Part shown: positions 26,255-61,269 of the stretch, piece after piece | How the letters are laid out: each line of letters opens with the position of its first letter | Numbering within the stretch: the first letter of the stretch is position 1 | Source: an uncultured Poribacteria bacterium | GTDB lineage: Bacteria > Poribacteria > WGA-4E > WGA-3G | Direction: 5' to 3' | DNA length: 64,000 nt | NCBI GenBank assembly: GCA_951812525.1 | Contig: OX638316.1 | Location: forward strand, 1,894,630 to 1,958,629 | The notes under the pieces: generated by a model | Databases searched by the model: none | What the model saw: only the letters and a program-made list of their open reading frames with translations | What the model was told of the DNA's origin: nothing | Made by a program: the position numbers and the translations under genes

Positions 26255-27250
26255 CTACCTTTTCACTTCTGCCCAGGTCGTGGTTAGCAGGTGCGGTTGT
26301 GGCGAGACCGGCAGCGCGTACGCAGGATCAAACCAATCCCCTAAGCTATACCATCCAGGCGGTCCCACCTCAACCGGTTCCCCGCCTATCGCAGCAATTT
26401 TGAAGATTTGCCACCGTTTTTTTTCCAATGCTTTATCCATTATCAGCTGTTGGTAAAACAGGACACTTCCATCTGGCGACCACATTGGATTCACTGCCCG
26501 TAACCCCGCCTCAGGCACGATTTGCTTAAGACCGCCACCGTCTCGGTTCACGGTATAAATTGTCTGCGTCTCAAGGAAGTCCTCTAACGGCACGCGGTGC
26601 AGCCATGAAAACGCAAGTCTATCTCCATTCGGAGACCACGCCATTTTCTCCATCCATGAAGGCTGTGCTTTTGGCGGGAAGAAAAACTTATAACGACCTG
26701 TTTCGACGTTGAGTATACTGATTCTCATACCTTTAGGCCCACCGGAAGTAAAGGCTAACTCTCTACCATCAGGAGACCACACCGGACCACATCCAATTGC
26801 GACGCGTTCCTCTTTTTTGCCGTCTATCGTTCCTATATAGAGGACGGACTGTCCTTGTTCCCGTGAACAGTAAGCAATCAGTTTTCCATCGGGTGACCAT
26901 GCCGGTGCGCCTCTATCCTTTGATTTTCCGAAGACGCGACGCACATTTGAACCGTCTGGATCCATCAGATAGAGATCAACACTCCCTGGAAACATATCGC
27001 GGTCTGACGAGAAAAGAATCTGTTCACCCGTTGGAGACCAAGCCGGATAATAATCCAGTGCTGCATTGTTGGTAAGATTTATCTGCTCGGATCCATCTGG
27101 ACTCATCAATAAGATGTCCCAATCTCCGCTTGGTGTCGCTGAAAGTGCTATTTTAGGGGTCGTCGGTGCTTTCGCAAAAACCAGAGATATACTCACATTC
27201 AGCACCAATACGCTAACTGTAACAATAACGAACAGTCTCACTATTTTCAT
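26255..27250 (-). CDS. TolB-like beta-propeller protein with C-terminal TTTW tag (paralog 1)
   Basis: 331 residues from ATG 27250 with GGAGG eight bases upstream. A signal peptide (KIVRLFVIVTVSVLVLNVSISLVFA, cut near AKAPTTPKI) precedes a six-bladed propeller of WD40-like PD40 repeats. These are seen as MSPDGSEQINLT, YPAWSPTGEQILF, APAWSPDGKLIAY, PVWSPDGRELAF, MAWSPNGDRLAF and NPMWSPDGSVLFY. It lacks the N-terminal domain of true TolB, and no tol or pal genes are near. The end is AYALPVSPQPHLLTTTWAEV plus KR, shared with five other propellers here. It is probably an exported or envelope protein of unknown binding role, and the last gene of the sigma/propeller operon. Confidence 0.88.
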   Translation of the reverse strand: MKIVRLFVIVTVSVLVLNVSISLVFAKAPTTPKIALSATPSGDWDILLMSPDGSEQINLTNNAALDYYPAWSPTGEQILFSSDRDMFPGSVDLYLMDPDGSNVRRVFGKSKDRGAPAWSPDGKLIAYCSREQGQSVLYIGTIDGKKEERVAIGCGPVWSPDGRELAFTSGGPKGMRISILNVETGRYKFFFPPKAQPSWMEKMAWSPNGDRLAFSWLHRVPLEDFLETQTIYTVNRDGGGLKQIVPEAGLRAVNPMWSPDGSVLFYQQLIMDKALEKKRWQIFKIAAIGGEPVEVGPPGWYSLGDWFDPAYALPVSPQPHLLTTTWAEVKR

Positions 27251-27355: not shown

Positions 27356-28375
27356 CTACTTTTTCACTTCTCCCCATGTCGTGGTGAGCAGGTGCGGTTG
27401 TGGCGAGACCGGCAGTGCATACGCCGGATCGAACCAATCTCCGCCAGCATTCGCTTGAAGCGGACCTTCAATATGTGTTAACTGTGTCTGAACACTACTG
27501 TTTATATCCAGTTTGAAGATTTGTAGATGTCCATTAATTTTCTGTGTATAGAGGACTTCTTTTCCATTCGGTGATAATTTAGGACTCGTTGCCTTCGGAC
27601 CCGCCTCATCTACAAGCTGCCGGAGATCGGTACCATCGCGATTGACCATGTAGATCGTTTGTTTATCAGCCCATCCCTTTGGCAATGCCTTGCCTGGCTC
27701 GAAGTCTGGCGGCAACCGATTCTTATTCCAAGAAAAGGCAAGTTTATCCCCTTCAGCGGACACGGACACCCGCGTTTGCCCACCTCTCAGTTTTCTGGGT
27801 AGTACCAGTTTTTGTGCCTCTGTGCGAACGTTGATAAATCCGATTCTGCCACCACTTAGTGAACAGACGATTTCTGTCCCATCCGGCGACCATACTGGGT
27901 AAAAGCCCTCAAAGATGAGTTCTGCCTCTTCTTGTTCCACAAGCGTCGCAATATAGATAGCGTATATATCCTTATCCCAGTTGATGTGCATGTAAGCGAT
28001 CTGTTTGCCATCGGGGGACCATGTCGGATAATCGCGATAAGTGCTCCCCTTCAGCTCTTTCTTGAAGACGGGTCGGACATTGGATCCATCGGTGTCCATC
28101 AAGTAGAGATCTCGCTTACCGCTGCGATCAGAGATGAACAGAATCTGTTCGCCTGTTGGGGACCAGACAGCGCTCATATCGTTTGTGGGATTTTGTGTAA
28201 GGCGCATCTGTTCAGAACCGTCGGGATTCATAATATAGACTTCGCGATTGCCATCGCGTGCGGAGGTGAACAGGATTTTGGGTGTTGAGGGTGCCTGTGC
28301 GGAAGCAGGGAAAAAGTATAGAGCGATTAGGAAGAAACTGAGAATGGAAAAAAGAAAACAGAATGTCCGTTTCAT
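27356..28375 (-). CDS. TolB-like beta-propeller protein with C-terminal TTTW tag (paralog 2)
   Basis: 339 residues. Signal peptide RTFCFLFSILSFFLIALYFFPASAQA, then ILFTSARDGNREVYIMNPDG and PD40 blades with MSAVWSPTGEQILF, YPTWSPDGKQIAY, YPVWSPDGTEIV and SPKLSPNGKEVLY. The C-terminus is QPHLLTTTWGEVKK. AAGGA precedes the ATG, and the upstream paralog ends only 15 bases before, so they share a transcript. Compared with paralog 1 it has Asp-Gly repeats that may bind calcium. Ligand unknown. Confidence 0.9.
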   Translation of the reverse strand: MKRTFCFLFSILSFFLIALYFFPASAQAPSTPKILFTSARDGNREVYIMNPDGSEQMRLTQNPTNDMSAVWSPTGEQILFISDRSGKRDLYLMDTDGSNVRPVFKKELKGSTYRDYPTWSPDGKQIAYMHINWDKDIYAIYIATLVEQEEAELIFEGFYPVWSPDGTEIVCSLSGGRIGFINVRTEAQKLVLPRKLRGGQTRVSVSAEGDKLAFSWNKNRLPPDFEPGKALPKGWADKQTIYMVNRDGTDLRQLVDEAGPKATSPKLSPNGKEVLYTQKINGHLQIFKLDINSSVQTQLTHIEGPLQANAGGDWFDPAYALPVSPQPHLLTTTWGEVKK

Positions 28376-28390
28376 GAGAGTTCCTTTACA

Positions 28391-29455
28391 TCAATTTTGT
28401 GTTTTCATTTTTCCCCAAGTCGTAGTAAGCAGATGTGGTTGCGGTGCAACCGGGAGCGCATACGCTGGATCGAACCAGGCACCACCGGCATTCGCTTGGA
28501 GAAGAGATGCACCGATAATATGCGTGAGCTGCGTCACAATGCGATTGTTCACGTTGACTTTGAAGACTTGGAAATATCCATTAATCTCCTGTGTATAAAG
28601 GACTTCCTCGCCATTTGGCGATAACGCTGGATACTGTGCATAAGGACCTGCTTCATCGACGAGTTGTCGAAGATCGGTGCCATCGCGATTGACAATATAG
28701 ATTGTCTCCTTATCACGCCATGCAGGTGGGAAACGATCTATACCGGGTCTGTGATTCGGCGGTAGTGGATTCTGATTCCAAGAAAAAACGAGTTTGTTTC
28801 TCGTAGCCGACCAAGATGGTCCATTTTGCCAAGAAGTTGCTTTCCTGGGTAGCAGGCGTTCTGTCTTCTTTGTGCGGATGTCAATCAGTGCCACTCGGCG
28901 AGCATCTAAGATATAAGTGACATAAGCGAGTTCTGTCCCATTCGGCGACCACACGGGGTCGAAGCCTTCTACGATGCGTTCCTCCTCTTGTTCACCTAAG
29001 GTCGCAACATAGATATGGGATTCTCCAGCGTCCCAGCTTATGTTATTGTAAGCGATCTGTTTGCCATCGGGGGACCACGTTGCATCCTTTCTAAAAGTTT
29101 CTTTCTTGAAGACGCGTCGGACGTTTTTTCCATCAGGGTCCATGAGATACAAATCCCAAGAGCCCCAAACCTTATGCCCTCGGTTGGAGGAGAAAAGAAT
29201 CTGTTCACCTGTTGGAGACCAGATAGCACTTTGATCATCTGCGGGATGCTGTGTCAGGTTTACCTGTTCAGAACCGTCAGGATTCATGATGTAGATGTCG
29301 CGATTGCCATCGCGTGCAGAGGTAAACAGGATTTTAGCGGTCGTTGGTGCCTTTGCGAAAACAGCCGTGACGCTTGTCAACAATAACATCAAACTGAAAA
29401 TGTGTAAAATCCAAAAAGGTTTACCCCATAGATTTCTCGTGTAAGCCTCTCGCAT
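28391..29455 (-). CDS. TolB-like beta-propeller protein with C-terminal TTTW tag (paralog 3)
   Basis: 354 residues with AGGAGG before the ATG. The signal peptide follows an N-terminal extension (REAYTRNLWGKPFWILHIFS), with cleavage near VFAKAPTT. PD40 blades appear as QSAIWSPTGEQILF, DATWSPDGKQIAYN, DPVWSPNGTELAYV, GPSWSATRNKLVFSW and YPALSPNGEEVLYT. The end is QPHLLTTTWGKMKTQN. It is closest to paralogs 2 and 4. A TATAAT at 29471-29476 (minus strand), next to the 32-bp repeat, may give it a promoter of its own. Confidence 0.9.
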   Translation of the reverse strand: MREAYTRNLWGKPFWILHIFSLMLLLTSVTAVFAKAPTTAKILFTSARDGNRDIYIMNPDGSEQVNLTQHPADDQSAIWSPTGEQILFSSNRGHKVWGSWDLYLMDPDGKNVRRVFKKETFRKDATWSPDGKQIAYNNISWDAGESHIYVATLGEQEEERIVEGFDPVWSPNGTELAYVTYILDARRVALIDIRTKKTERLLPRKATSWQNGPSWSATRNKLVFSWNQNPLPPNHRPGIDRFPPAWRDKETIYIVNRDGTDLRQLVDEAGPYAQYPALSPNGEEVLYTQEINGYFQVFKVNVNNRIVTQLTHIIGASLLQANAGGAWFDPAYALPVAPQPHLLTTTWGKMKTQN

Positions 29456-29577: not shown

Positions 29578-29624
29578 ACCAATTGCCAATTGCCAACCGC
29601 CAATTGCTAACCGCCAACCGCTAC
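29578..29624. repeat. Heptamer tandem repeat (GCCAATT/GCCAACC)
   Basis: Six to seven units next to and over the stop codon of paralog 4. A matching run stands at 27305-27355 after paralog 2, and a short one at 42819-42840. Confidence 0.85.
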
Positions 29625-30631
29625 TGTTTCACCTCTCCCCACGTCGTGGTGAGCAGGTGTGGCTGTGGTGCAACCGGCAACGCATACGCCGGATCAAACC
29701 AGTCTCCGCCAGTATTCCAACTGATATGCGTTAACTGTGTTTGAACCCCGCTATTTACATCCAGTTTGAAGATTTGGAAATCCCCATTAATGTCTTGTGT
29801 ATAGAGGATTTCTTCTCCATTCGGCGATAACACCGGAGATGCTGCTCTCGGACCGGCTTTATCAACCAATTGTTTGAGACCCGTGCCGTCCCGGTTTATA
29901 ATATAGATTGTATATTTGTCCTCCCATCCCGGAGGAAACGCATCGCCCGGCTTGCGGTCGGGTGGTAACGGGGTATTATTCCAAGCAAAGACAAGTTTGT
30001 CGCCTGCAGCAGACCATGATGGGCTGTATTGATAAGCCATTGCTTTTCTCGGTAGGAGTCGTTTTTGTCCGTGTGTACGGAGGTTGATAAATGTAATTCG
30101 ACCCCATATCATGCAAGCGATTTCTGTTCCGTCCGGCGACCATGCTGGAAATAAGCCATCCATGCCGAGTTCCTCTTCATCTTGTTCTCCAAGGGTTGCG
30201 ATGTAGATAGGGTACTTGTTAGCGTCCCAATTGTTGGATCCATACGCGATTTGTTTTCCATCTGGCGACCATGTTGGATGGTTTCTATCAATTTCTGCTT
30301 TTCTCTTGAAGACGCGTCGGACATTGGATCCATCGGGATCCATGAGATACAAATCCCATGAACCCCAAACAGGACGCTCTCGGTTGGATGCGAAAAGAAT
30401 TTGCTCGCCAGTCGGGGACCAGACGGCTTCTTGATCATCTGCGGGATGCTGTGTCAAGTTCACCTGTTCAGAACCGTCGGGATTCATGATAAAGACGTCG
30501 CGATTGCCGTCGCGTGTGGAAGCAAACAGGATTTTAGCAGTCGTCGGTGCTTTTGCGAAAACCGAAGATATACTTACATTCAGCATCAACAGGTTCGCTA
30601 TGGCAAAACCTAACAGTTTCGTTGTTGTCAT
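29621..30631 (-). CDS. TolB-like beta-propeller protein with C-terminal TTTW tag (paralog 4)
   Basis: 336 residues. Signal peptide KLLGFAIANLLMLNVSISSVFA followed by KAPTTAKILFASTRDGN and PD40 blades (EAVWSPTGEQILF, HPTWSPDGKQIAYG, FPAWSPDGTEIACM, SPSWSAAGDKLVFAW, SPVLSPNGEEILY). The C-terminus is QPHLLTTTWGEVKQ. The sigma/propeller fusion gene ends 24 bases upstream on the same strand, so this is the second gene of that transcript. The signal peptide is nearly the same as in paralog 1, which points to gene conversion or recent copying. Confidence 0.9.
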   Translation of the reverse strand: MTTTKLLGFAIANLLMLNVSISSVFAKAPTTAKILFASTRDGNRDVFIMNPDGSEQVNLTQHPADDQEAVWSPTGEQILFASNRERPVWGSWDLYLMDPDGSNVRRVFKRKAEIDRNHPTWSPDGKQIAYGSNNWDANKYPIYIATLGEQDEEELGMDGLFPAWSPDGTEIACMIWGRITFINLRTHGQKRLLPRKAMAYQYSPSWSAAGDKLVFAWNNTPLPPDRKPGDAFPPGWEDKYTIYIINRDGTGLKQLVDKAGPRAASPVLSPNGEEILYTQDINGDFQIFKLDVNSGVQTQLTHISWNTGGDWFDPAYALPVAPQPHLLTTTWGEVKQ

Positions 30632-30655: not shown

Positions 30656-33600
30656 CTAATTTACATGTTCTGCTTCAAGGGAAACATGAAACATCCCGAT
30701 CCGTTCTGTAGAGATGTAAAGTTTGTTGTTATTGACAATAAGAGCAGCTATCTTACTCGGAACGTTTGGCAAAATCTGTTCCCACTTGCCACGAGTATCC
30801 AAGCGATAGACACCCGTATCGCCAGCACCATAAACGCTAACATGATCGACAGTGAGTCTGTCTATAAGCGTCCGTTCCCCAGCACGGTCAGTAAGCACGC
30901 GCCAATGTTCGCCGTTCTGCGAAGCCAAAACTCCTTTGTCGGTTGCGACGTAAACTGTTGAACCCGCAAAGAGGATCTCCTTGAAACTCTCAAAATGAAG
31001 CGGTAGGGTGAGTGTTATGTCTTTCCAACTGTTTCCATCATCAAACGATTGAAACAACTTGCCATCCCGCATACCGACATAGACCGTCCCTGCTGAAACT
31101 GCTAACTTGAAGCCACTATCGTTGTATATATTATTAACATAGGTGCTATCGGTGTCCATTAATCCGGTATGTGTCCACTGTGAATCACCGGGTTGCCATT
31201 TAAAAAGCCCTCGCTGGTATTCCACGTAGAACGTCCCATCACTGACAGTGAACCCACCGGTACTCGCATAGGTCTCAATGGGACGCAGATCCTCTGTCAA
31301 CTTAGGATCGTTTACTATATTATCAAACCGGTAAATCACTTTCAATTTTAAGAGAGTTGTCCGTAATTCGGTGGGCAGCATTTCATAATCAAGCGTGGGC
31401 ATTCCTTGAACAGGAATGAGTGCATTCGCGTCCATAGATAAACGGAAAATATATAAATTTTCTTTTTTAATCGTGAGTCCATACAGGTTCCCGTCTGCGA
31501 CCGCTAACTTTGCGTCAGGAGATAGATTAAAACGAGTTTGCGCTTTTCCCCATGATTCGGCATTAATCTGAACGCTTTTCCATGATTCACCATCATCGGA
31601 TGATTGGGCAAAGTTGCGATCGGTATATGTATAGAATCTGTCATTAAGCACTACCAATTCCTGTGTGCGCGTTCCTATGATCCCGTCTGTGAAGAGTTGC
31701 CACGAGTCGCCAGCATCGGTTGTTCGATGAATGCCGTATATGCCGACTGTGTAAAATGTCCTTTCGTTCACCGCTAAATTTTCCCAAATACCGTACATAG
31801 TCAGATTCGGATCAGTCCCAAGCTTTGTCCAAGTTTGCCCTGCATCCGTAGAACGAAAACGTTCGGTCCCTCGTACTAAGAACGTCTCACCAGCAACCAA
31901 AAATTGCATAAGGGTTCTTGAATTAAAAAAGAGTGGTTCATTTTTAGGCGTTATCTCAGTCCATGATTCACTCAAATCGGCTGAGTGGAAAATCCGACCC
32001 GGCACGGATTCGGTGCCCGCGATTACCCGCTCGGGCGTTTCAGGTGTTCTCCACATATACAGATTGGGACCCATTGCGACATAGAGGTTATTTTCAAAGG
32101 TCTCCAAAGAATAAACAGCGTTGAGGGCTTCCACCGGTACTGGCTCCCAACCCCCGGCGTTCGGGCGGTAGAAACCTGTGTCTGTATCAGCAGACCGTGC
32201 ATTTTCAGAGGATTGTGGAGTTTTAAAGGCATCAATCAGGACTTGTTCCCAACCCCCGGCGTTGAGACGGTAAAGTCCTTCATTCGTGCCAGCAAATACA
32301 GTGTTTCCAATCGCTGCGACTGCATAAATACGTTTGCCTGCCAGTCCATCGTTAAGGAGGTCCCAGTGTGCACCAGCATCCGTAGATCGAAAAACGACTT
32401 TATCTATCACGTTATCTTCCAAAGTAAGATACATTGTAATATTTGCTTGCGAACCGGTTGCCTGTGTTGCGTCTGTAATGATGAGTCCAAGAGCGTTTCC
32501 TTCTGGTTTTGGACAAAAGGCGTTCCATGTTTCACCATTATCAGTTGAGGCGAAAATTTCATTTTTAGCGACAATGTAAAGAGTGCCAGTATGCTCTGCC
32601 ATTGCTATCTTGCTGCCGGTTCGGATATCGGTATTCATCGGTGTCCACGCTGTCGCATCTGTTGGCAATCTGTAGACACCTGTTTGTGTAGAAACGTAGA
32701 GGGTCCCCGAGGCGGTCTCAAAAATGTCATAGGTAGGACTCCCTTGCGGACCGGTTGCCTGTGTCCACTGCGCCGTAGAAAATTGAGAGACATCTACTTC
32801 TGCATCAGATGTTGAGACGTTATTAGAAATCTGCGAACCCGCATTGCCAGCATTGTCGTTGGAGGTGGCACGCCCAATCTGATTGCGGATATCGGGTTTT
32901 GAATCAACATCAAGGATAATCGGGGCATCAATGATTTCAATGGTGGGTTCAGATTGTGCCTCGAAACTATAGGGTTCTTGGAAACGGAGAAAGTATAGCT
33001 TGCTGATACCGAGCATTAATAGGAGTGTCAGAACAGCTGCTGCACCAAAAGCGCCCCACGGAATCAAGTGTTTCGTAGCAGACGGAGGTTGTATAGGATT
33101 CAAGTCAGCAACTTGCCGCATGATATTCTGGCTTATACGCACTGGTATCTGCACGCCGCCGAGGACTTCTTGAATGAGGAATTCCTGATCCTTGCGTAAA
33201 CGCTCACGTCCCCTATGGAGCCGACTTTTGATCGTATTCGCCGACACACCCAAGAATTTGCTTATTTCCCGGATCGTCATTTCACCGAGATAGTGGAGTG
33301 TGACAACGGTGCGTTCACTCTCTGGAAGTTTCGCAAGAAGTTTTTTGACAATATCGTGGCGACGCTCACTGGTGTCTGCCTCGCGCTGCTCCGAGAGATA
33401 ACGTTCATAAGTGAAACTATCTATCTCTTTCGGGGATGTGTCATCGAGCGATCGCATCGCAGGTTTTTGCTTTTTGAGCCAATTAATGCAGCGCCGGTTT
33501 GCGATGACGTAGAGCCAGCCAGCAAACTGGTTCGGATTCCTGAGCGTTGAGAGTTTCTTGTATACTTGAAGGAAGGTGTCTTGGGTAATCTCTTCAGCAT

Positions 33601-33733
33601 AGTGGAAATCCCCAGTCTTTCGCCATACGAGCGCGTGAACTTTCCTCTGGTATTTTTCGACCAGCGTGCTAAATGCCGCATCGTCGCCTGACAAAGTATC
33701 CTGAATCAATTGAACATCATTTTTTTTTTCCAC
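30656..33733 (-). CDS. ECF sigma factor fused through one TM helix to a BNR beta-propeller
   Basis: 1025 residues. GTG 33733 follows AGGAGG by seven bases and gives a normal sigma N-terminus. Residues about 15-88 are sigma region 2 (FSTLVEKYQRKVHALVWRKT, AEEITQDTFLQVYK, FAGWLYVIANRRCINWLKKQ). About 128-182 are region 4 (LPESERTVVTLHYLGEMTIR, GVSANTIKSRLHRGRERLRK). A single helix at about 226-247 follows. From about 300 to the end come eight or more Asp-box/Ycf48-type repeats such as STDNGETW, STDAGQTWTKLG, SSDDGESWKSV and SFDDGNSWKDI. ECF factors are usually about 190 residues with a separate anti-sigma. Here the sigma seems tethered to the membrane with a sensor-like propeller outside. It heads the operon of four TolB-like propellers. 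Confidence 0.92.
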   Translation of the reverse strand: MEKKNDVQLIQDTLSGDDAAFSTLVEKYQRKVHALVWRKTGDFHYAEEITQDTFLQVYKKLSTLRNPNQFAGWLYVIANRRCINWLKKQKPAMRSLDDTSPKEIDSFTYERYLSEQREADTSERRHDIVKKLLAKLPESERTVVTLHYLGEMTIREISKFLGVSANTIKSRLHRGRERLRKDQEFLIQEVLGGVQIPVRISQNIMRQVADLNPIQPPSATKHLIPWGAFGAAAVLTLLLMLGISKLYFLRFQEPYSFEAQSEPTIEIIDAPIILDVDSKPDIRNQIGRATSNDNAGNAGSQISNNVSTSDAEVDVSQFSTAQWTQATGPQGSPTYDIFETASGTLYVSTQTGVYRLPTDATAWTPMNTDIRTGSKIAMAEHTGTLYIVAKNEIFASTDNGETWNAFCPKPEGNALGLIITDATQATGSQANITMYLTLEDNVIDKVVFRSTDAGAHWDLLNDGLAGKRIYAVAAIGNTVFAGTNEGLYRLNAGGWEQVLIDAFKTPQSSENARSADTDTGFYRPNAGGWEPVPVEALNAVYSLETFENNLYVAMGPNLYMWRTPETPERVIAGTESVPGRIFHSADLSESWTEITPKNEPLFFNSRTLMQFLVAGETFLVRGTERFRSTDAGQTWTKLGTDPNLTMYGIWENLAVNERTFYTVGIYGIHRTTDAGDSWQLFTDGIIGTRTQELVVLNDRFYTYTDRNFAQSSDDGESWKSVQINAESWGKAQTRFNLSPDAKLAVADGNLYGLTIKKENLYIFRLSMDANALIPVQGMPTLDYEMLPTELRTTLLKLKVIYRFDNIVNDPKLTEDLRPIETYASTGGFTVSDGTFYVEYQRGLFKWQPGDSQWTHTGLMDTDSTYVNNIYNDSGFKLAVSAGTVYVGMRDGKLFQSFDDGNSWKDITLTLPLHFESFKEILFAGSTVYVATDKGVLASQNGEHWRVLTDRAGERTLIDRLTVDHVSVYGAGDTGVYRLDTRGKWEQILPNVPSKIAALIVNNNKLYISTERIGMFHVSLEAEHVN

Positions 33734-34200
33734 GATATTCCCTCCTAATGAATGGATGAGGTATATCCACATCTACCGAAAGGCTTAATCAAAACACTTT
33801 CACATACATTATAGAATCATTAAAGATTTTTTTACATACATAGACACAATTTTAGGGCAGAAAGTGTGCATAATTTGAAAAAAATGTCAGAAATCCGAAT
33901 TTTTATCTATCTATTTATTAACGTGAGTTGACTTAAGCCCGTAGGGAATCAACGCCGAGTGCGTCTGTGGCATTCGGTGGGGTAGAGCGGAGCGAAACCC
34001 AACAATCTGCGTAATCTGTATAATCTACGTAATCTGCGATTTGCTGCGTACTGGGTTGGATGGATAAAAAAGCACGGAAAAGATTCACAAATATAAAGTA
34101 AATATATAAACTAAATGCCCTGCCCTGTCCCGAACAAGTTCGGGCGTCCAGATATAGATTATTGAAAAACTGAGTGACCCTGAACACCGAAACAAAAAAC
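33734..34200. repeat. Gene-free divergent gap with mixed repeat fragments
   Basis: The gap holds a GGTAGAGCGGAGCGAAACCC repeat at about 33979-34000 (also near 29520), a 9-base repeat of AATCTGCGT form at 34004-34039, and pieces of the MITE family: TAAACTAAATGCCCT near 34107-34121 and a right end ACTGAGTGACCCT at 34169-34181. A promoter for the sigma/propeller gene must be here, but I could not identify it. Confidence 0.6.
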
Positions 34201-42863: not shown

Positions 42864-42896
42864 ACTGTAGTGAGATTGGGAATAAGGAGAGAGCGT

Positions 42897-43541
42897 ATGA
42901 AACTATTAACCCTCTTGGGTATCTGTGCGTTGATATGCGTTGGCTGCACCAGTGCCGAATACCAGAAGATGCAAGCGGAACGCGATCAACTCCTCAAAAA
43001 TTATGAAAACCTCCGCGAAGAGCATAGTGAACTCAAAGTCAAAGGCGACATAACCGATACACTCCTGGGAAAGTGGAAGTTCCTAAACCTTGAGGTCGAG
43101 GAAGGCACTGCCATCGAAGATGTGGCGAAGACACGGACTGCACTGCGTGCACTGGATTTGGAAGACCTCACACTCGAATTCTTTGAGGAGAAAGATATCT
43201 ACCACTACCGAGGTGAAAATAGCGGCACAGAGGTTTTCGGTCAATTTAGCATCTTCACCGTCCGATATGGCGACGAACCGTTCCCGTTCATTCGTTTTAT
43301 CAGACGCTCCGGTCCAGAGATGTCGCAACTCCTTTTTGCCATAAGTCGGGATAGGCAGTCGTCTGGACCTTTGGGGCTTTCAGATCCGCAAGGACTCGCA
43401 ACAGCAAAAGAAATCAGCATTTCGGTTACAGCGGACAGGTTATATCTCACGATGCACGGTAAGATGCAATCAGGACCGGTCGGTTGGGTGCAAAGCGGTG
43501 GAATGCACTGCTACTTTGAGAGGAAGGAGGATGAGCAATGA
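42897..43541 (+). CDS. Lipoprotein paralog 1 of 3, unknown family
   Basis: 214 residues from ATG 42897 with AAGGAG upstream. The lipobox LICVGC is at the end of a short signal peptide. A heptad-rich stretch after the Cys (YQKMQAERDQLLKNYENLRE) looks like a coiled coil. The core has LLGKWKFLNLEVEEG, LEFFEEKDIYHYRGENSGTE and FPFIRFIRRSGPEMSQLLFA and ends VGWVQSGGMHCYFER. All these blocks recur in the next two genes. The core looks like a small beta barrel or lipocalin-like fold, but I do not recognise the family. Its stop overlaps the next start (ATGA). Confidence 0.8.
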   Translation: MKLLTLLGICALICVGCTSAEYQKMQAERDQLLKNYENLREEHSELKVKGDITDTLLGKWKFLNLEVEEGTAIEDVAKTRTALRALDLEDLTLEFFEEKDIYHYRGENSGTEVFGQFSIFTVRYGDEPFPFIRFIRRSGPEMSQLLFAISRDRQSSGPLGLSDPQGLATAKEISISVTADRLYLTMHGKMQSGPVGWVQSGGMHCYFERKEDEQ

Positions 43542-44452
43542 AAATGCTAACGATGCTTGGTGTTATGCTGGTGGTATTTACTAGTTGTGCGGTGCTAACG
43601 CCGCAAGAGATACAGCAGGAGCGACTTCGTCTGCTTGAGGCTTATGATGAAGCACGCCAAAGACACAACCCAGAGAAGGTTAAAGGGGCTGTAAAAGACC
43701 TGCTCATCGGCAAATGGCAGTATGTCGGATTGGAGGTCGAAGGGGGCAACACTACAGTGAAGGTGGTTAAACCGACACCCGATCAGCAGAAAAACGTACC
43801 CGACTCCTTTGCAGAACGCGTTTTCAAGGGTGCTATCAGTAAACAGGCAACAACATCCAATGCACCTGAACAAACGGCATCACCAAACTCGCCGGATTCA
43901 GAAGCAGACGAGCAGAACCCAGAAGAAAATGCAACTCGCTTGCCGCGTATTGAAGTTACCGATGATAAATCGAGCCAACAGATACTGGGTGCAAAAACGG
44001 CGCTTGTTGCATCCACGCGTCAAAATCTTACAGTCGAGTTTTTCGAGGACCGCGGCTCGTACCATTACAGCGGTAGCAATAGCGGCAGGAATGTCACCGG
44101 GCAGTGTTATGTTACCACCAAACAATACCAAGACGATATTTTTCCGTTTATCCGTTTTAATCAGCAAACCGGACCAGAGATGCTTGCGTTCCTATTCGGT
44201 TCTGAACCCGTGAAACAGATAGCTGCGAAGCAAAAACAGGAACTGGCTACTATGGTACAGAATCGCAGAATGGGCATAAAAGCTGCGCGCCGCGCCGCTG
44301 CAAAACGGAACTCCTTCTCAGCGGCTTCGATGGCAGGAATTACGGTGACGGAAGATACCCTTTATCTGGTCCTGTACGGAGATATGAAACTCACTGCCAA
44401 AGGTTGGATGCGGACCGGCGGACTGCGATGCACTTTTAAGCGGGTTGAGTAG
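43538..44452 (+). CDS. Lipoprotein paralog 2 of 3, with a long insertion
   Basis: 304 residues, start overlapping the previous stop and AAGGAGG just upstream. Lipobox LVVFTSC. It shares LLIGKWQYVGLEVEGG, LTVEFFEDRGSYHYSGSNSG, FPFIRFNQQTGPEMLAFLFG and the end KGWMRTGGLRCTFKR with paralog 1. It differs by about 75 extra residues after the first block, rich in Gln, Asn, Ser, Pro and Glu (SNAPEQTASPNSPDSEADEQ), probably disordered, and by an Arg/Ala-rich helix near the C-terminus. The function is unknown. Confidence 0.8.
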   Translation: MKMLTMLGVMLVVFTSCAVLTPQEIQQERLRLLEAYDEARQRHNPEKVKGAVKDLLIGKWQYVGLEVEGGNTTVKVVKPTPDQQKNVPDSFAERVFKGAISKQATTSNAPEQTASPNSPDSEADEQNPEENATRLPRIEVTDDKSSQQILGAKTALVASTRQNLTVEFFEDRGSYHYSGSNSGRNVTGQCYVTTKQYQDDIFPFIRFNQQTGPEMLAFLFGSEPVKQIAAKQKQELATMVQNRRMGIKAARRAAAKRNSFSAASMAGITVTEDTLYLVLYGDMKLTAKGWMRTGGLRCTFKRVE

Positions 44453-44453
44453 A

Positions 44454-45035
44454 ATGAAAATTTTAACGTCTCTCAATATCCTGATTCTTATATTCACGAG
44501 TTGTACTTCCGCGAAATATCAGCAGATGCAGGATGAACGGGACAAACGGCGGGCGGCGTATGAAGATGCCCGCAGAAAAAGCGACTGGCAGACGCTCAAA
44601 ACTACCCTTGGGCGTGAGGTGCTCGGTACATGGCAGTTTCTTGACATAGAGGTATTAGAAAGCGATCTGAGCAACGAGATTCAGACAGCAGCCGTCGCAC
44701 TCGCCGCTTCAAGTCGCAAACACCTTACGATCCGCTTTTTTCAAGAGAACAACGTCCACTTTTATGAGCTAAAAAACGGCAATATCGACGCTTCGGGTGA
44801 ATTTACTATCAGGATTGAGCGTCTCGCTGAGACGTTGGTGCCTTTGATTAAATTGAATCGTGATAAGGGCATCGCCCCGGAAGAGGTTATATTCAGTCGT
44901 CCGGTACTTAGGAGAACCTTGATTGAAATAGAGCAGGACAGGCTCTATCTGACAACCGGCTACGGACAATTGTTGACCCCCGCAGGTTGGGCTCAGATTG
45001 GTGGGTCCAGATATTCCTTTAAACGGATTGAATAG
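44454..45035 (+). CDS. Lipoprotein paralog 3 of 3
   Basis: 193 residues. ATG 44454 is chosen over a TTG three codons earlier because it starts the signal peptide MKILTSLNILILIFTSC directly; its ribosome binding site is weak and it follows the upstream stop by one base, so it is probably coupled. It keeps the coiled-coil YQQMQDERDKRRAAYEDARR, VLGTWQFLDIEVLESD, LTIRFFQENNVHFYELKNG and the end AGWAQIGGSRYSFKR. It is the shortest and most diverged of the three. The TolB-like gene begins 21 bases later. Confidence 0.8.
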   Translation: MKILTSLNILILIFTSCTSAKYQQMQDERDKRRAAYEDARRKSDWQTLKTTLGREVLGTWQFLDIEVLESDLSNEIQTAAVALAASSRKHLTIRFFQENNVHFYELKNGNIDASGEFTIRIERLAETLVPLIKLNRDKGIAPEEVIFSRPVLRRTLIEIEQDRLYLTTGYGQLLTPAGWAQIGGSRYSFKRIE

Positions 45036-45056: not shown

Positions 45057-46025
45057 ATGAGAATGACACGCTTTTTCCTTTTTTCTTGTATCGGTTTGGT
45101 TTTCACGTTTGTAAGTATTTACGCTGTCGACGCAAGGGCACCGAGGACCGAGAAGATCGTATTTTCATCAAATCGGCGTGGGAATTGGGATATCTATGTG
45201 ATGAACCCCAATGGCAGCAATCAGCTCAGACTCACCCAAAGCCCTTTAATCGATGTCAGTCCGGTCTGGTCGCCGACAGGGGAACAGATTCTTTTTGTCT
45301 CTGGTCAGAGTGGTGCGAGGGATCTCTATGTGATGGATGCCAACGGTAAACGCCTACGGAGAGTTTTTGGAAGTCCGGCACATAGGATCGAACCGGCTTG
45401 GTCTCCCGATGGAGAAAGGATAGTATTTCACGCCCAATTGCCGCAATGGAGCATCCAAACCGCTACGATACACGGCAGAGATCTGAGAATAGTGGCTGCA
45501 GCCGACCCACGAGGTGGTAATCCTTCGTGGTCACCCGATGGAAAAGAGATAGCATACGTTGACAATATTAATAACTCCCGCCGTATCCGAATTGTTACAC
45601 TCAGTTCAGGTGCTATACGAACGTTCCTCCCCAATGAATCCTCATGGATGTATACACCGGCATGGTCGCCAGATGGTGAACAGCTTGCGTTTACTTGGTA
45701 CAAGTGGGGTGTAGGGGATAAGGACGCACTTTTCGTCGCCAATCGTAATGGAACCCGTTTGAAGCAGATTGGAAAAGCCATACCCGGTACGTCCAGTCCT
45801 GCTTGGTCACCCGCAGGAGATAAAATCGCTTATATGGAAGAAGCCGCGGAGGGAAATCGTCAAATCGCCATAATTGATGTAAACACAAAAAGGAATAAGG
45901 AACTCACGCATCGCGGCTGGAACATTACACCCTCTTGGTTCGATCCAGCGTATGTAACATTGCCCGTCGCACCGCAACCGCACCTGCTAACAACTGTGTG
46001 GGGTAAAGTCAAAGGTCAAGACTGA
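45057..46025 (+). CDS. TolB-like beta-propeller protein with C-terminal TTVW tag (paralog 5)
   Basis: 322 residues, AGGAG eight bases before the ATG. The signal peptide is RFFLFSCIGLVFTFVSIYAV with cleavage near DARAPRTEK. PD40 blades: SPVWSPTGEQILF, EPAWSPDGERIVF, NPSWSPDGKEIAY, TPAWSPDGEQLAFTW, SPAWSPAGDKIAY. It ends APQPHLLTTVWGKVKGQD. It is co-transcribed with the lipoprotein trio, so here the propellers are linked to lipoproteins and in the other cluster to a sigma-propeller fusion. Confidence 0.9.
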   Translation: MRMTRFFLFSCIGLVFTFVSIYAVDARAPRTEKIVFSSNRRGNWDIYVMNPNGSNQLRLTQSPLIDVSPVWSPTGEQILFVSGQSGARDLYVMDANGKRLRRVFGSPAHRIEPAWSPDGERIVFHAQLPQWSIQTATIHGRDLRIVAAADPRGGNPSWSPDGKEIAYVDNINNSRRIRIVTLSSGAIRTFLPNESSWMYTPAWSPDGEQLAFTWYKWGVGDKDALFVANRNGTRLKQIGKAIPGTSSPAWSPAGDKIAYMEEAAEGNRQIAIIDVNTKRNKELTHRGWNITPSWFDPAYVTLPVAPQPHLLTTVWGKVKGQD

Positions 46026-46045: not shown

Positions 46046-47065
46046 ATGAACCGCCCCATTATCACGTCTTGTTCAGAAAATCGAGGTTTAAGCAAACTTA
46101 CGATACTCAGTTTCGCTGTCAGTGCGTTTTTTGTATTCGGCAGTATCTCTACTATTTGGGCACAAGCACCGATGACCGAGAAGGTAGTATTTACTTCATA
46201 TCGAGATGGAAATGCTGAGATCTATACGATGAATCCAGATGGAAGTAAGCAGGTTAACCTGACTCGAAACAATGCAGCGGACTATGATCCGGTCTGGGCA
46301 CCTAATGGAGAACAGATTCTATTCGTCTCAGATCGGGATGGACCTTTTGATTTGTACGTTATGGATGCCGATGGCAGCAGCGTCCATAAAGTGTTCGGAA
46401 GCAGGGAATTTAGGTGGAATCCAACTTGGTCGCCCGATGGCAGAAAGATTGGCTACGTGCAAGGGAAGGAAAAGGACAGCATTATCTACGTTGCCACGAT
46501 AAAGGGTGGACTTGTTGAAAGGTTGACTAACGGATTTATGCCGAGTTGGTCGCCCGATGGGCGCGAGATAGTTTTTTCTGCTGTTAGCCCAAACAGCGCG
46601 CCGCTCGGTGTTTTCAACCTCCGAACCCGTACCAAGAAAACGCTGCTCTCAAACAAGATGCCGTGGATAGTGTCTCCAGCATGGTCGCCGCGGGGTAGCA
46701 AAATCGCCTTTTCGCAAATTGACGGGAAGTTCAATCAAGGCTTTCTGGAATGGACAAGGGCGAACATTTACGTTGTCAATCGCGATGGCGCGGGACTTCA
46801 TCAGATTATCAAAAATGAAGGGGCAGTTGCTATGGATCCCACTTGGTCCCCACAAGGCGATGAACTCATTTACATAGATGCAGTTATCCGAGCCGGACAT
46901 TTCTCTATGCACCTCTTTAGAACCGATTTGAGCGGTCACAGCCCGACGCAGCTTACACACGATGGAGACAATTACGATCCGGATTGGTTTGATCCTACAA
47001 CTTTAGATGTCTCTCCTTCGGAACACTTGCTAACAACCGTTTGGGGAAAGATCAAAGCCGATTAA
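46046..47065 (+). CDS. TolB-like beta-propeller protein with C-terminal TTVW tag (paralog 6)
   Basis: 339 residues. An N-terminal extension (NRPIITSCSENRGLSKLT) precedes the signal helix ILSFAVSAFFVFGSISTIWA, then QAPMTEKVVFTSYRDGNAEI. PD40 blades: DPVWAPNGEQILF, NPTWSPDGRKIGY, MPSWSPDGREIVF, SPAWSPRGSKIAF, DPTWSPQGDELIY. The final part is diverged (TTLDVSPSEHLLTTVWGKIK) yet keeps the LLTTxWGxxK core. It is the last gene of the lipoprotein/propeller operon; its stop overlaps that of hrpB in the convergent sequence TTAA. Confidence 0.9.
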   Translation: MNRPIITSCSENRGLSKLTILSFAVSAFFVFGSISTIWAQAPMTEKVVFTSYRDGNAEIYTMNPDGSKQVNLTRNNAADYDPVWAPNGEQILFVSDRDGPFDLYVMDADGSSVHKVFGSREFRWNPTWSPDGRKIGYVQGKEKDSIIYVATIKGGLVERLTNGFMPSWSPDGREIVFSAVSPNSAPLGVFNLRTRTKKTLLSNKMPWIVSPAWSPRGSKIAFSQIDGKFNQGFLEWTRANIYVVNRDGAGLHQIIKNEGAVAMDPTWSPQGDELIYIDAVIRAGHFSMHLFRTDLSGHSPTQLTHDGDNYDPDWFDPTTLDVSPSEHLLTTVWGKIKAD

Positions 47066-59397: not shown

Positions 59398-60243
59398 TTA
59401 GGGTTTCTTGATATGTGCCCATGTAGTAGCGAGTTTGCCTTGCGCTTCCACAGCGACGGGATCGATGAGCGCACCATCGGCGAGTTCCTCTACTTCGTCT
59501 GCGCTGAGAGCACGATCCCAGAAGTAGATCTCGTCAATCATACCGTCAATCCAGTTGTCGTTACCAAGGTTGCCGCCGACTTGGCGTCCAACACCGATTT
59601 CAACAGGACGTTCTGGGAATGTCAACAGTGGTGCCTCCATCGGTCTCGGATTCTGCTGTCCGCTTGCGGGTACCTCAGTGCCGTCTGTAACGGACGAGGT
59701 TACATACGCCGTGGCTTCGGCGCCATCAGCAACATAAGCGACGTGAACCCATTCCTCTTCTGCGTAAACATCACCTGTGGCGAACCAACCTTCGGTGCCT
59801 TCCCAGCAGCTGCCCCATGTCATGCTGGTAGCATCTGTGGTACACATCCGAACCATGAAAAGGGCACCCCAACCGACCTTTTCACCTTTCCAGAACATCG
59901 CAGCATGGTCTCTACCACCGCCGGTCCTGACATTCACCCACAAGGAGACGGAAAAGACTCCATCTTCTTGTTCAAGGCTTGCGGATGATGGAACTTCGAC
60001 ATACTGTCCGGTGTTCTCACCCGTCGCCGGATTTTCCGGGTTCTCAAGGTTGAGTGCCATGCCGAATTCAGCGTTTGTCGTGCTGGCGCCGTTCATGAAT
60101 GCGCCGTCGTTACTTCCGATGGAGTCATTCGCCGAACCGTCGTTAAAGTTCCAAACAGAGACGAGTCCATCTGCGAGCTCGGCGTGACTATTGGTGCCGA
60201 GTATCATAAGTGCTAAGATGAAAAACAGACCAATTTGCTTCAT
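59398..60243 (-). CDS. LamG/concanavalin-fold secreted protein 1 with TTW C-terminal tag
   Basis: 281 residues. Signal peptide KQIGLFFILALMILGTNSHA followed by ELADGLVSVWNFNDGSANDS, the start of a LamG (Laminin_G_3) jelly roll that runs to IDEIYFWDRALSADEVEELA. VEVPSSASLEQEDGVFSVSL and WKGEKVGWGALFMVRMC lie in the middle. The end is VAVEAQGKLATTWAHIKKP, whose LATTW-x-x-x-K matches the end of the TolB-like propellers. LamG domains bind glycans or calcium; no catalytic residues are seen. Its own terminator follows. Confidence 0.88.
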   Translation of the reverse strand: MKQIGLFFILALMILGTNSHAELADGLVSVWNFNDGSANDSIGSNDGAFMNGASTTNAEFGMALNLENPENPATGENTGQYVEVPSSASLEQEDGVFSVSLWVNVRTGGGRDHAAMFWKGEKVGWGALFMVRMCTTDATSMTWGSCWEGTEGWFATGDVYAEEEWVHVAYVADGAEATAYVTSSVTDGTEVPASGQQNPRPMEAPLLTFPERPVEIGVGRQVGGNLGNDNWIDGMIDEIYFWDRALSADEVEELADGALIDPVAVEAQGKLATTWAHIKKP

Positions 60244-60331
60244 GATAAAGCTCCTTATCGTTTTGACCCTAACTTAGCGGGTTTGCGATAGGGTTCACAA
60301 ACCCGCTATATTTTTTGATTGTCAATTAGAT

Positions 60332-61174
60332 TTAGCGGCGGTTATCACGGTGGTGATAGGATTTAACCGTTCCCCATGTGGTGGCTACTTTGCCTTCCGC
60401 TTTGACTGCAAGCGCTTTCTCTGGACGGGTCCCGCTTGCGAGTTCCTCTACTTCGTCTTCCTCGAGTGCGCGATCCCAGAGGATGACATCGTCAATTATT
60501 CCGTCAAGGAATGTATCATTGCCATCATTGCCACCGATGCCTCGACCCGCACCGAGTTCCAAGGGACGATCTGGGAATAGATGGTAGGGTGCCGATGAGG
60601 GTTTCGGGTTCCCTTGACCACTGGCAGGTATTTCGACTTTACCATCTATTCCGACGTATCCTATGGCTTCCTCACCATCTACCGTCTGAATGCAGTAGAT
60701 CCACTTATCGGGTTCAATAGCACCATCCGTAGCGAACCAGTTTTCGGCGCCGCCACTGCATGTGCCCCAAGTCATATTGGTGCTACTGGTTGTGACCATC
60801 CGAAAGGTGAAGTTTGGACCCCAACCGACCTTTTCGCCTTTCCAAACGCCGGAGTGGTCTCTACCCTCTCGAACAAAGAGCCAATAGCCGACGGTGAACT
60901 CTTGTTCAATGACTTTCTCAAGAGCGGGGGTAAACTCAATATCCGCTCGCGAATCATCGTTCCCATCAACATCCAATGCCTTGCCAAATTTACCGTCGTT
61001 GGTGATTGAAGCTCCCTTAAAGAGTTCGCCGTGTACCTTACCAATGGAATCTGTTACCTTGCCATCATCAAAGGTCCAGGCGGCAACGACACCATCATTT
61101 ATGTCCGCGTTCGCAGACGTTGTTATGCAAATCGCAAATATAGCGATAGTAAGTATTGAAATAAACAGTTTCAC
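60332..61174 (-). CDS. LamG/concanavalin-fold secreted protein 2 with TTW C-terminal tag
   Basis: 280 residues. GTG 61174 is favoured because AGGAGG lies about ten bases upstream and the protein then begins directly with a signal peptide (KLFISILTIAIFAICITTSA); ATG 61204 has no site. The LamG domain opens DINDGVVAAWTFDDGKVTDS, has WKGEKVGWGPNFTFRMVTTS and closes IDDVILWDRALEEDEVEELA. The end AEGKVATTWGTVKSYHHRDN has the TTWGxVK core followed by a His/Arg-rich extension. Clear paralog of LamG 1, 88 bases downstream. Confidence 0.88.
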   Translation of the reverse strand: MKLFISILTIAIFAICITTSANADINDGVVAAWTFDDGKVTDSIGKVHGELFKGASITNDGKFGKALDVDGNDDSRADIEFTPALEKVIEQEFTVGYWLFVREGRDHSGVWKGEKVGWGPNFTFRMVTTSSTNMTWGTCSGGAENWFATDGAIEPDKWIYCIQTVDGEEAIGYVGIDGKVEIPASGQGNPKPSSAPYHLFPDRPLELGAGRGIGGNDGNDTFLDGIIDDVILWDRALEEDEVEELASGTRPEKALAVKAEGKVATTWGTVKSYHHRDNRR

Positions 61175-61269
61175 TTTAAATTGCCCTCCTTTACCGATTT
61201 TCATCGAATAAAAACAAACGGATTACATAATGAACGCTCATGATTTTGCGTTATCTATACTATTTTTCC

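What the first reader, a model, noticed from the sequence alone, without database searches (positions are those of the whole stretch)
59398..61174. The same tag on LamG proteins, a different fold
The LamG proteins end EAQGKLATTWAHIKK and KAEGKVATTWGTVK. The core L/V-x-TTW-x-x-[V/I]-K matches the propeller tails although LamG jelly rolls share no ancestry with TolB-like propellers. That makes a modular targeting signal more likely than a domain strand. Together eight tagged proteins lie within 35 kb.
Basis: partly seen in the sequence, partly recalled or inferred. Interest (0 to 1): 0.75.

Follow-up and report, generated by a model that had tools for sequence, protein, structure and literature searches.

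The report
Phylum-wide C-terminal protein sorting tag
Over a hundred exported proteins of unrelated shapes in this sponge-type bacterium (Poribacteria) end in the same roughly 15-residue label, which the whole phylum uses and no family library consulted here names, so it is most likely an address label that tells the cell where to send or attach these proteins.

Summary
Both LamG proteins and six TolB-like propellers carry the motif near their C-termini, and it occurs nowhere else in the window's six frames. In the 5.06-Mb genome the core TTW[GA]xxK has 92 exact matches (1 for the reversed pattern); 91 of 92 peptide matches lie within 12 residues of a stop. With the relaxed form, V-x-[PA]-x-x-K-[LA]-x3-W-[GA]-x-[LIV]-K-x(1-5)-COOH, I count about 135 tagged proteins, including nearly every LamG protein. 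Carriers span LamG, PD40 propellers, DUF1080-like, CBM4_9 and F5/8C-like domains plus unassigned families; 84 of 90 look Sec-exported. All 85 phylum genomes have it; named hits outside Poribacteria were chance. AlphaFold leaves the tail unpacked, and it is the best-conserved segment among orthologues. No Pfam/NCBIfam model covers it. The phylum also has a type IX secretion (T9SS) set (SprA-like, PorV-family, PorU-like sortases, type A CTDs), reported missing in 2014. In 53 genomes the tag also sits at near-fixed spacing just before such a CTD. Best reading: a short C-terminal sorting/attachment signal, probably served by the T9SS-type envelope machinery. Modularity and export are well supported; the reader protein is inferred.

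The parts
59398..60243 (-). LamG protein A (281 aa), N-terminal signal peptide-like helix, Laminin_G_3 78-251, tagged
59407..59451 (-). C-terminal tag V265-K279 (VEAQGKLATTWAHIK), 2 residues before stop
   Evidence: pLDDT below 50
60332..61204 (-). LamG protein B (290 aa), tandem paralogue of A (about 46-49% identity), tagged
60362..60406 (-). C-terminal tag V267-K281 (VKAEGKVATTWGTVK), followed by 9 residues
26255..27352 (-). PD40 propeller protein; tag at 26261-26308 (VSPQPHLLTTTWAEVK)
27356..28375 (-). PD40 propeller protein; tag at 27362-27409
28391..29455 (-). PD40 propeller protein; tag at 28403-28450
29621..30631 (-). PD40 propeller protein; tag at 29627-29674
45057..46025 (+). PD40 propeller protein; tag at 45966-46013 (VAPQPHLLTTVWGKVK)
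46046..47065 (+). PD40 propeller protein; tag at 47009-47056 (VSPSEHLLTTVWGKIK)

Best explanation
The tail is a phylum-wide, modular C-terminal sorting tag of Poribacteria: V-x-[PA]-x-x-[KR]-[LA]-x(3-4)-W-[GA]-x-[LIV]-K followed by 1-5 residues and the carboxyl end. Proteins enter the periplasm by Sec with a cleaved signal peptide. Their flexible C-terminal tag is then recognised by envelope machinery that carries them across, or fixes them to, the outer membrane. The most likely machinery is the T9SS-type system that every poribacterial genome searched appears to encode (SprA-like translocon, PorV-family shuttles, PorU-like sortases), with the tag acting as a minimal T9SS signal or as the sortase/attachment site. 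Shown by computation: the tag, its C-terminal position, its modularity, conservation, phylum-wide spread, an unpacked tail in the model, and its junction with type A CTDs. Suggested by a crude heuristic: Sec export. Inferred: recognition by the T9SS, surface location, any cleavage. PorV and PorU homologues were searched for in the own genome only.
For: 91 of 92 core matches are C-terminal; 92 matches against 1 reversed control in the own genome, and 85 of 85 genomes with a match. V(-8), P/A(-6), K(-3) and L(-2) are conserved although not part of the search pattern. Unrelated carriers. Nearly all LamG proteins are tagged in two distant genomes; a LamG protein without the tag carries a type A CTD instead (L300). 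Signal-peptide-like N-termini 84/90. Tag is the best-conserved segment in orthologues (0.96 and 0.95 mean majority-residue frequency, against LamG 0.90/0.88 and linker 0.81/0.84). Tail unstructured. T9SS parts: SprA family in 35 genomes, PorV family, three PorU-like proteins, CTDs above the TIGR04183 cut-off. Tag directly before a CTD at near-fixed spacing in 53/85 genomes, in UnbV/FG-GAP, WD40 and other cargo, in the low-confidence linker of that model, where cleavage sites lie in Prevotella cargo (PMC11969387).
Against: The link to T9SS is circumstantial. Tag and CTD profiles are not alignable. The tag is much shorter than any T9SS signal described in the papers read (40-82 aa, PMC11969387). 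PorV-family genes are not significantly near tagged genes. Tag and CTD counts correlate only moderately (rho 0.40, or 0.58 within the genus; not corrected for genome size). Only about 2% of CTDs are preceded by the strict tag. SprA matches stay below the curated equivalog cut-off except in one genome. The motor (GldKLMN) was not tested. Because all genomes have both tag and T9SS parts, phylogenetic profiling cannot separate them.
Confidence: 0.55

Rival explanations
1. A sorting or retention tag for exported proteins, read by machinery unrelated to T9SS (for example an unknown receptor in the periplasm, outer membrane or extracellular matrix, or an S-layer-like lattice).
For: Most tagged proteins have no CTD and most CTD proteins have no tag; no sequence relation between tag and CTD; no clustering with PorV-family genes.
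Against: Recurrent fusion of the tag to the front of type A CTDs with near-constant spacing in several cargo families; a T9SS set is present in the genomes searched.
Confidence: 0.27
2. A special case of the best explanation: the tag is the recognition or attachment site of the PorU-like C25 sortases rather than a translocation signal. It sits where CTD cleavage would occur, and tag-only proteins already end near the mature C-terminus.
For: Position exactly before the CTD; low-confidence linker in the model; A, S or T in 42 of 91 at the residue after the invariant K, against a favoured small +1 residue in Bacteroidota (PMC11969387); three PorU-like proteins.
Against: Most CTD proteins lack the tag, so the sortases cannot need it; no cleavage data.
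Confidence: 0.2
3. A structural element of each fold: the last strand or cap of the LamG or propeller domain, similar by descent or convergence.
For: Nearly all LamG proteins have it; it lies directly after the domain.
Against: Shared by many unrelated folds; unpacked in the model; conserved more than the linker; also found between cargo and CTD.
Confidence: 0.04
4. A degradation, chaperone or quality-control signal at the C-terminus (degron-like) rather than a sorting signal.
For: Short, terminal, unstructured, with the distance to the carboxyl end restricted to 1-5 residues in most cases.
Against: Carriers look like exported carbohydrate-binding proteins, and the tag is present on essentially all members of a family, which suits localisation better; also found internal, before CTDs.
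Confidence: 0.05

Closest known systems
T9SS type A C-terminal sorting domain (TIGR04183 / PF18962)
   Same: C-terminal, on Sec-exported proteins, shared by unrelated cargo, dozens per genome; present in the same genomes; conserved Lys near the end (in type A CTDs a near-invariant Lys contacts PorV, PMC10994853).
   Different: About 15-20 residues against about 70-100; no beta-sandwich, no GxY motif; profiles do not align; W is near-invariant.
Short T9SS CTDs of Prevotella intermedia (PMC11969387)
   Same: Shortened C-terminal signal in an organism that also has long ones.
   Different: 40-55 aa, three strands, motifs B/D/E kept; the poribacterial tag has none of these.
Tripartite CTERM tags (PEP-CTERM, GlyGly-CTERM, MYXO-CTERM; PMC1569441, PMC3237569, PMC11980579)
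   Same: Short lineage-restricted C-terminal tag on many unrelated exported proteins; MYXO-CTERM is universal within one phylum, as this tag is.
   Different: No transmembrane helix after the signature, no basic cluster on the cytoplasmic side, no membrane sortase implied.
HBP35 CTD C-terminal 22 residues (PMC3120885)
   Same: A terminal stretch of about 20 residues was required for T9SS surface translocation and glycosylation of a GFP fusion.
   Different: Part of a folded CTD with motifs D and E; different sequence.

Membership tests
T9SS type A CTD | match to TIGR04183 or Pfam Por_Secre_tail, beta-sandwich of 70-100 aa | tested here: not met
   No NCBIfam/Pfam match in the tails; hhalign of tag against poribacterial CTD body 0.3% probability; tail pLDDT below 50
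T9SS type A CTD | C-terminal position on proteins with a Sec signal peptide | tested here: met
   91/92 at the C-terminus; 84/90 signal-peptide-like by heuristic
T9SS type A CTD | export depends on SprA/PorV | not testable with these tools
   needs genetics or binding data
Short CTD of Prevotella type | 40-55 aa with motifs B, D (GxY) and E | tested here: not met
   tag is 15-20 aa and its logo shows no GxY pattern; definition from PMC11969387
Tripartite CTERM tags | hydrophobic helix plus basic cluster after the signature | tested here: not met
   only 1-5 mostly polar residues follow the signature in most proteins
T9SS present in the organism | SprA/Sov translocon | tested here: met
   TIGR04189 E 2.7e-41 for the 2248-aa protein, four stretches; match in 35 of 35 genomes searched (only a fragment in G007); only G006 exceeds the curated cut-off; no PDB match by sequence
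T9SS present in the organism | PorV shuttle | tested here: met
   NF033709, seven places at or above cut-off, best E 2.9e-66; PDB PorV 6h3i_F E 0.00087
T9SS present in the organism | PorU-type C25 sortase | tested here: met
   three C25 proteins; NF033707 E 4.9e-114, 382 bits against cut-off 420; PDB PorU 6za2 E 1.4e-33
T9SS present in the organism | GldKLMN/PorKLMN motor and ring | not tested
Laminin_G_3 (PF13385) | score above gathering cut-off | tested here: met
   58 and 46 bits against 27.6

The most novel reading that the evidence does not exclude
A new class of outer-membrane sorting signal: a C-terminal peptide of about 15 residues without fold or membrane helix, universal in one phylum, that by itself routes well over a hundred secreted proteins per genome through or onto a T9SS-type machine, alongside and interchangeable with the classical folded type A CTD.
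Probability: 0.4. Interest if true: 0.85.

Novelty: new variant of a known kind. Interest (0 to 1): 0.7.

Why it matters
Poribacteria are dominant uncultured sponge symbionts, and how their very large set of carbohydrate-binding proteins reaches the surface is unknown. Kamke et al. 2014 (PMC3909097) noted T9SS-type C-terminal domains but stated that the secretion genes were not found. Here SprA-like, PorV-family and PorU-like genes are detected, and a second, shorter and more frequent C-terminal signal appears next to them. The tag lets the sorted proteome be listed from sequence alone, and a minimal 15-residue signal would be a tractable probe of what T9SS shuttles and sortases actually read.

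Tried and rejected
My first DNA pattern was off by one base; repeated correctly. The named-collection pattern also lacked one N, so it covers only proteins whose [LI] codon is TTA; it still shows the taxonomic restriction but undercounts. Tag as a fragment or last strand of the CTD: rejected by hhalign. Tagged genes clustering with PorV-family genes: 4 of 15 within 3 kb, 2.2 expected, p 0.16, rejected. Phylogenetic profiling of tag against T9SS: uninformative, since both are universal; G009 with one strict hit turned out to carry relaxed tags. Earlier description of the tag in the literature: none found in the held library.

Full report
Observation. The two LamG ORFs and six PD40 propeller ORFs are as described and all end in the motif. 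In six frames of the 64-kb window the motif occurs eight times, always 1-9 residues before a stop of a long ORF and never elsewhere. One LamG protein has nine further residues after TTWGTVK, so 'ends in' is slightly loose for that one.

Genome scale. The window lies in a 5.06-Mb single-contig genome. The DNA pattern for TTW[GA]xxK has 92 exact matches and 1 for the reversed pattern. I took the surrounding stretches of the exact places listed: 91 of 92 distinct peptide matches are at most 12 residues from a stop, usually 1-4. The codons differ freely at third positions, so the constraint is on the peptide, not on a DNA element. The fuller motif is [AP]-V-[ED]-[PA]-x-[GD]-K-L-[TAS]-T-T-W-[GA]-x-[LI]-K; V, P, K and L were not part of the search pattern and are conserved nonetheless. 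In propellers the spacing V to W is one residue longer.

Relaxed form and true number. I took the 97 Laminin_G_3 matches of the genome as an independent list. Among the 36 fetched because they lacked a strict tag, 34 end in a relaxed tag (W[GAS]x[LIVM][KR] near the end); the others are a fragment with an internal TGA and one domain of an 813-aa protein. Of the further cases seen, one 499-aa LamG protein has no tag and one large LamG protein has a type A CTD instead (L306, L300). Together about 135 tagged proteins are located in this genome; this is a minimum, since families other than LamG were only searched with the strict core. G009, a distant genome with one strict match, tags most of its LamG proteins in the relaxed form.

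Spread. All 85 genomes of the phylum that are held have strict matches (1-131 per genome, 5462 in all, reversed control 0-4 each). A named scan of 84,980 species gave 99 stretches; 72 of the 80 listed are titled Poribacteria. The eight others are not plausible C-termini of long ORFs, while 68 of 74 poribacterial matches pass a simple C-terminus test and the rest are cut off by contig or stretch ends. This scan covered only a codon subset by my error.

Carriers. Pfam over 86 tagged proteins: Laminin_G_3 50, PD40 10, 3-keto-disaccharide hydrolase (DUF1080) 4, F5/8 type C 2, CBM_4_9 1 and others; several have no match. These are different folds, so common descent of the whole protein cannot explain the tail. 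84 of 90 have a signal-peptide-like N-terminus by a home-made hydrophobicity test, against 83 of 166 other ORFs in the same stretches; this is not SignalP and the background includes non-genes.

The tail itself. AlphaFold2 with 51 sequences gives a LamG jelly roll, but residues 265-281 have pLDDT below 50 with two marginal helical turns; Foldseek finds carbohydrate-binding jelly rolls such as domain 4 of the arabinanase AbnA. In 16 and 17 orthologues of the two window genes within the genus, which mostly remain a tandem pair, the tag is the most conserved segment (0.96 and 0.95) against LamG 0.90/0.88 and linker 0.81/0.84. No Pfam or NCBIfam model matches the tail; the weak 0.14 hit of one tail is noise.

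Relation to T9SS. The single own-genome strict match that is not terminal is followed by AAEVFQNYPNPFNPETW..., a T9SS type A sorting domain (TIGR04183 above cut-off). The same arrangement, W[GA]xxK followed at near-constant spacing by NYPNPFNPETW, occurs in 53 of 85 genomes, in UnbV/FG-GAP proteins, WD40 propellers and others. In a model of such a C-terminus the tag lies in the low-confidence linker before the confident CTD. All 85 genomes have CTDs. Kamke et al. 2014 reported such domains and said the structural genes were not found (PMC3909097). I find a SprA-family match in 35 of 35 genomes searched, including a 2248-aa protein in the own genome, and in the own genome PorV-family proteins and three PorU-like C25 proteins, two of which end in a CTD themselves. 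SprA is below the curated equivalog score except in one genome and has no sequence match in the PDB, so it is a divergent relative.

Mechanism. Shown by computation: a modular, conserved, C-terminal peptide in a phylum that has a T9SS-like gene set. Suggested: Sec export. Inferred: the tag is read by that machinery, either as a minimal translocation signal or as a sortase/attachment site; a wholly different reader remains possible (0.27). Precedents from the papers: the last 22 residues of the HBP35 CTD are required for translocation (PMC3120885); Prevotella has 40-55-aa CTDs, and the cleavage sites lie in the flexible linker before the CTD, with small residues usually favoured at +1 in Bacteroidota (PMC11969387); a near-invariant Lys near the end of type A CTDs contacts PorV (PMC10994853). 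The tag is not a member of the CTD family.

Verdict. It is a new variant of a known kind, C-terminal sorting tags, distinct from the tripartite CTERM tags because it has no membrane helix, and from T9SS CTDs because it has no fold.

Noticed in passing
L273:6074-12820 (-), own genome about 1.481-1.488 Mb; L374, L375, L373; L370: A T9SS gene set (SprA-like, three PorU-like C25 proteins, PorV family) is present in this poribacterial genome, although a 2014 single-cell paper reported that structural genes were not found.
   Followed up: partly
window 30656-33772 (-): A 1038-aa ORF joins an ECF sigma factor (Sigma70 r2 and r4) to a sortilin/BNR-like beta-propeller region, directly upstream of the four tagged propellers; possibly a sensing sigma factor.
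   Followed up: no
L273:14258-15094 (+): A tagged LamG protein lies near the SprA-like gene, in divergent orientation with one ORF between.
   Followed up: no
own genome, whole: Tagged genes cluster in tandem: 22 gaps of at most 1.5 kb among 135 tags, 5.3 expected by random placement.
   Followed up: partly
window 42870-45035 (+): Three consecutive related lipoprotein-like ORFs stand directly before the two plus-strand tagged propellers; no family assigned.
   Followed up: no
L076-L105 (one search places): 66 places encode a YPNPFNPET-type CTD in this genome, most preceded by a conserved P-K-E-T-x-LL-x-N neck whose K occupies the same place as the tag's last K.
   Followed up: partly
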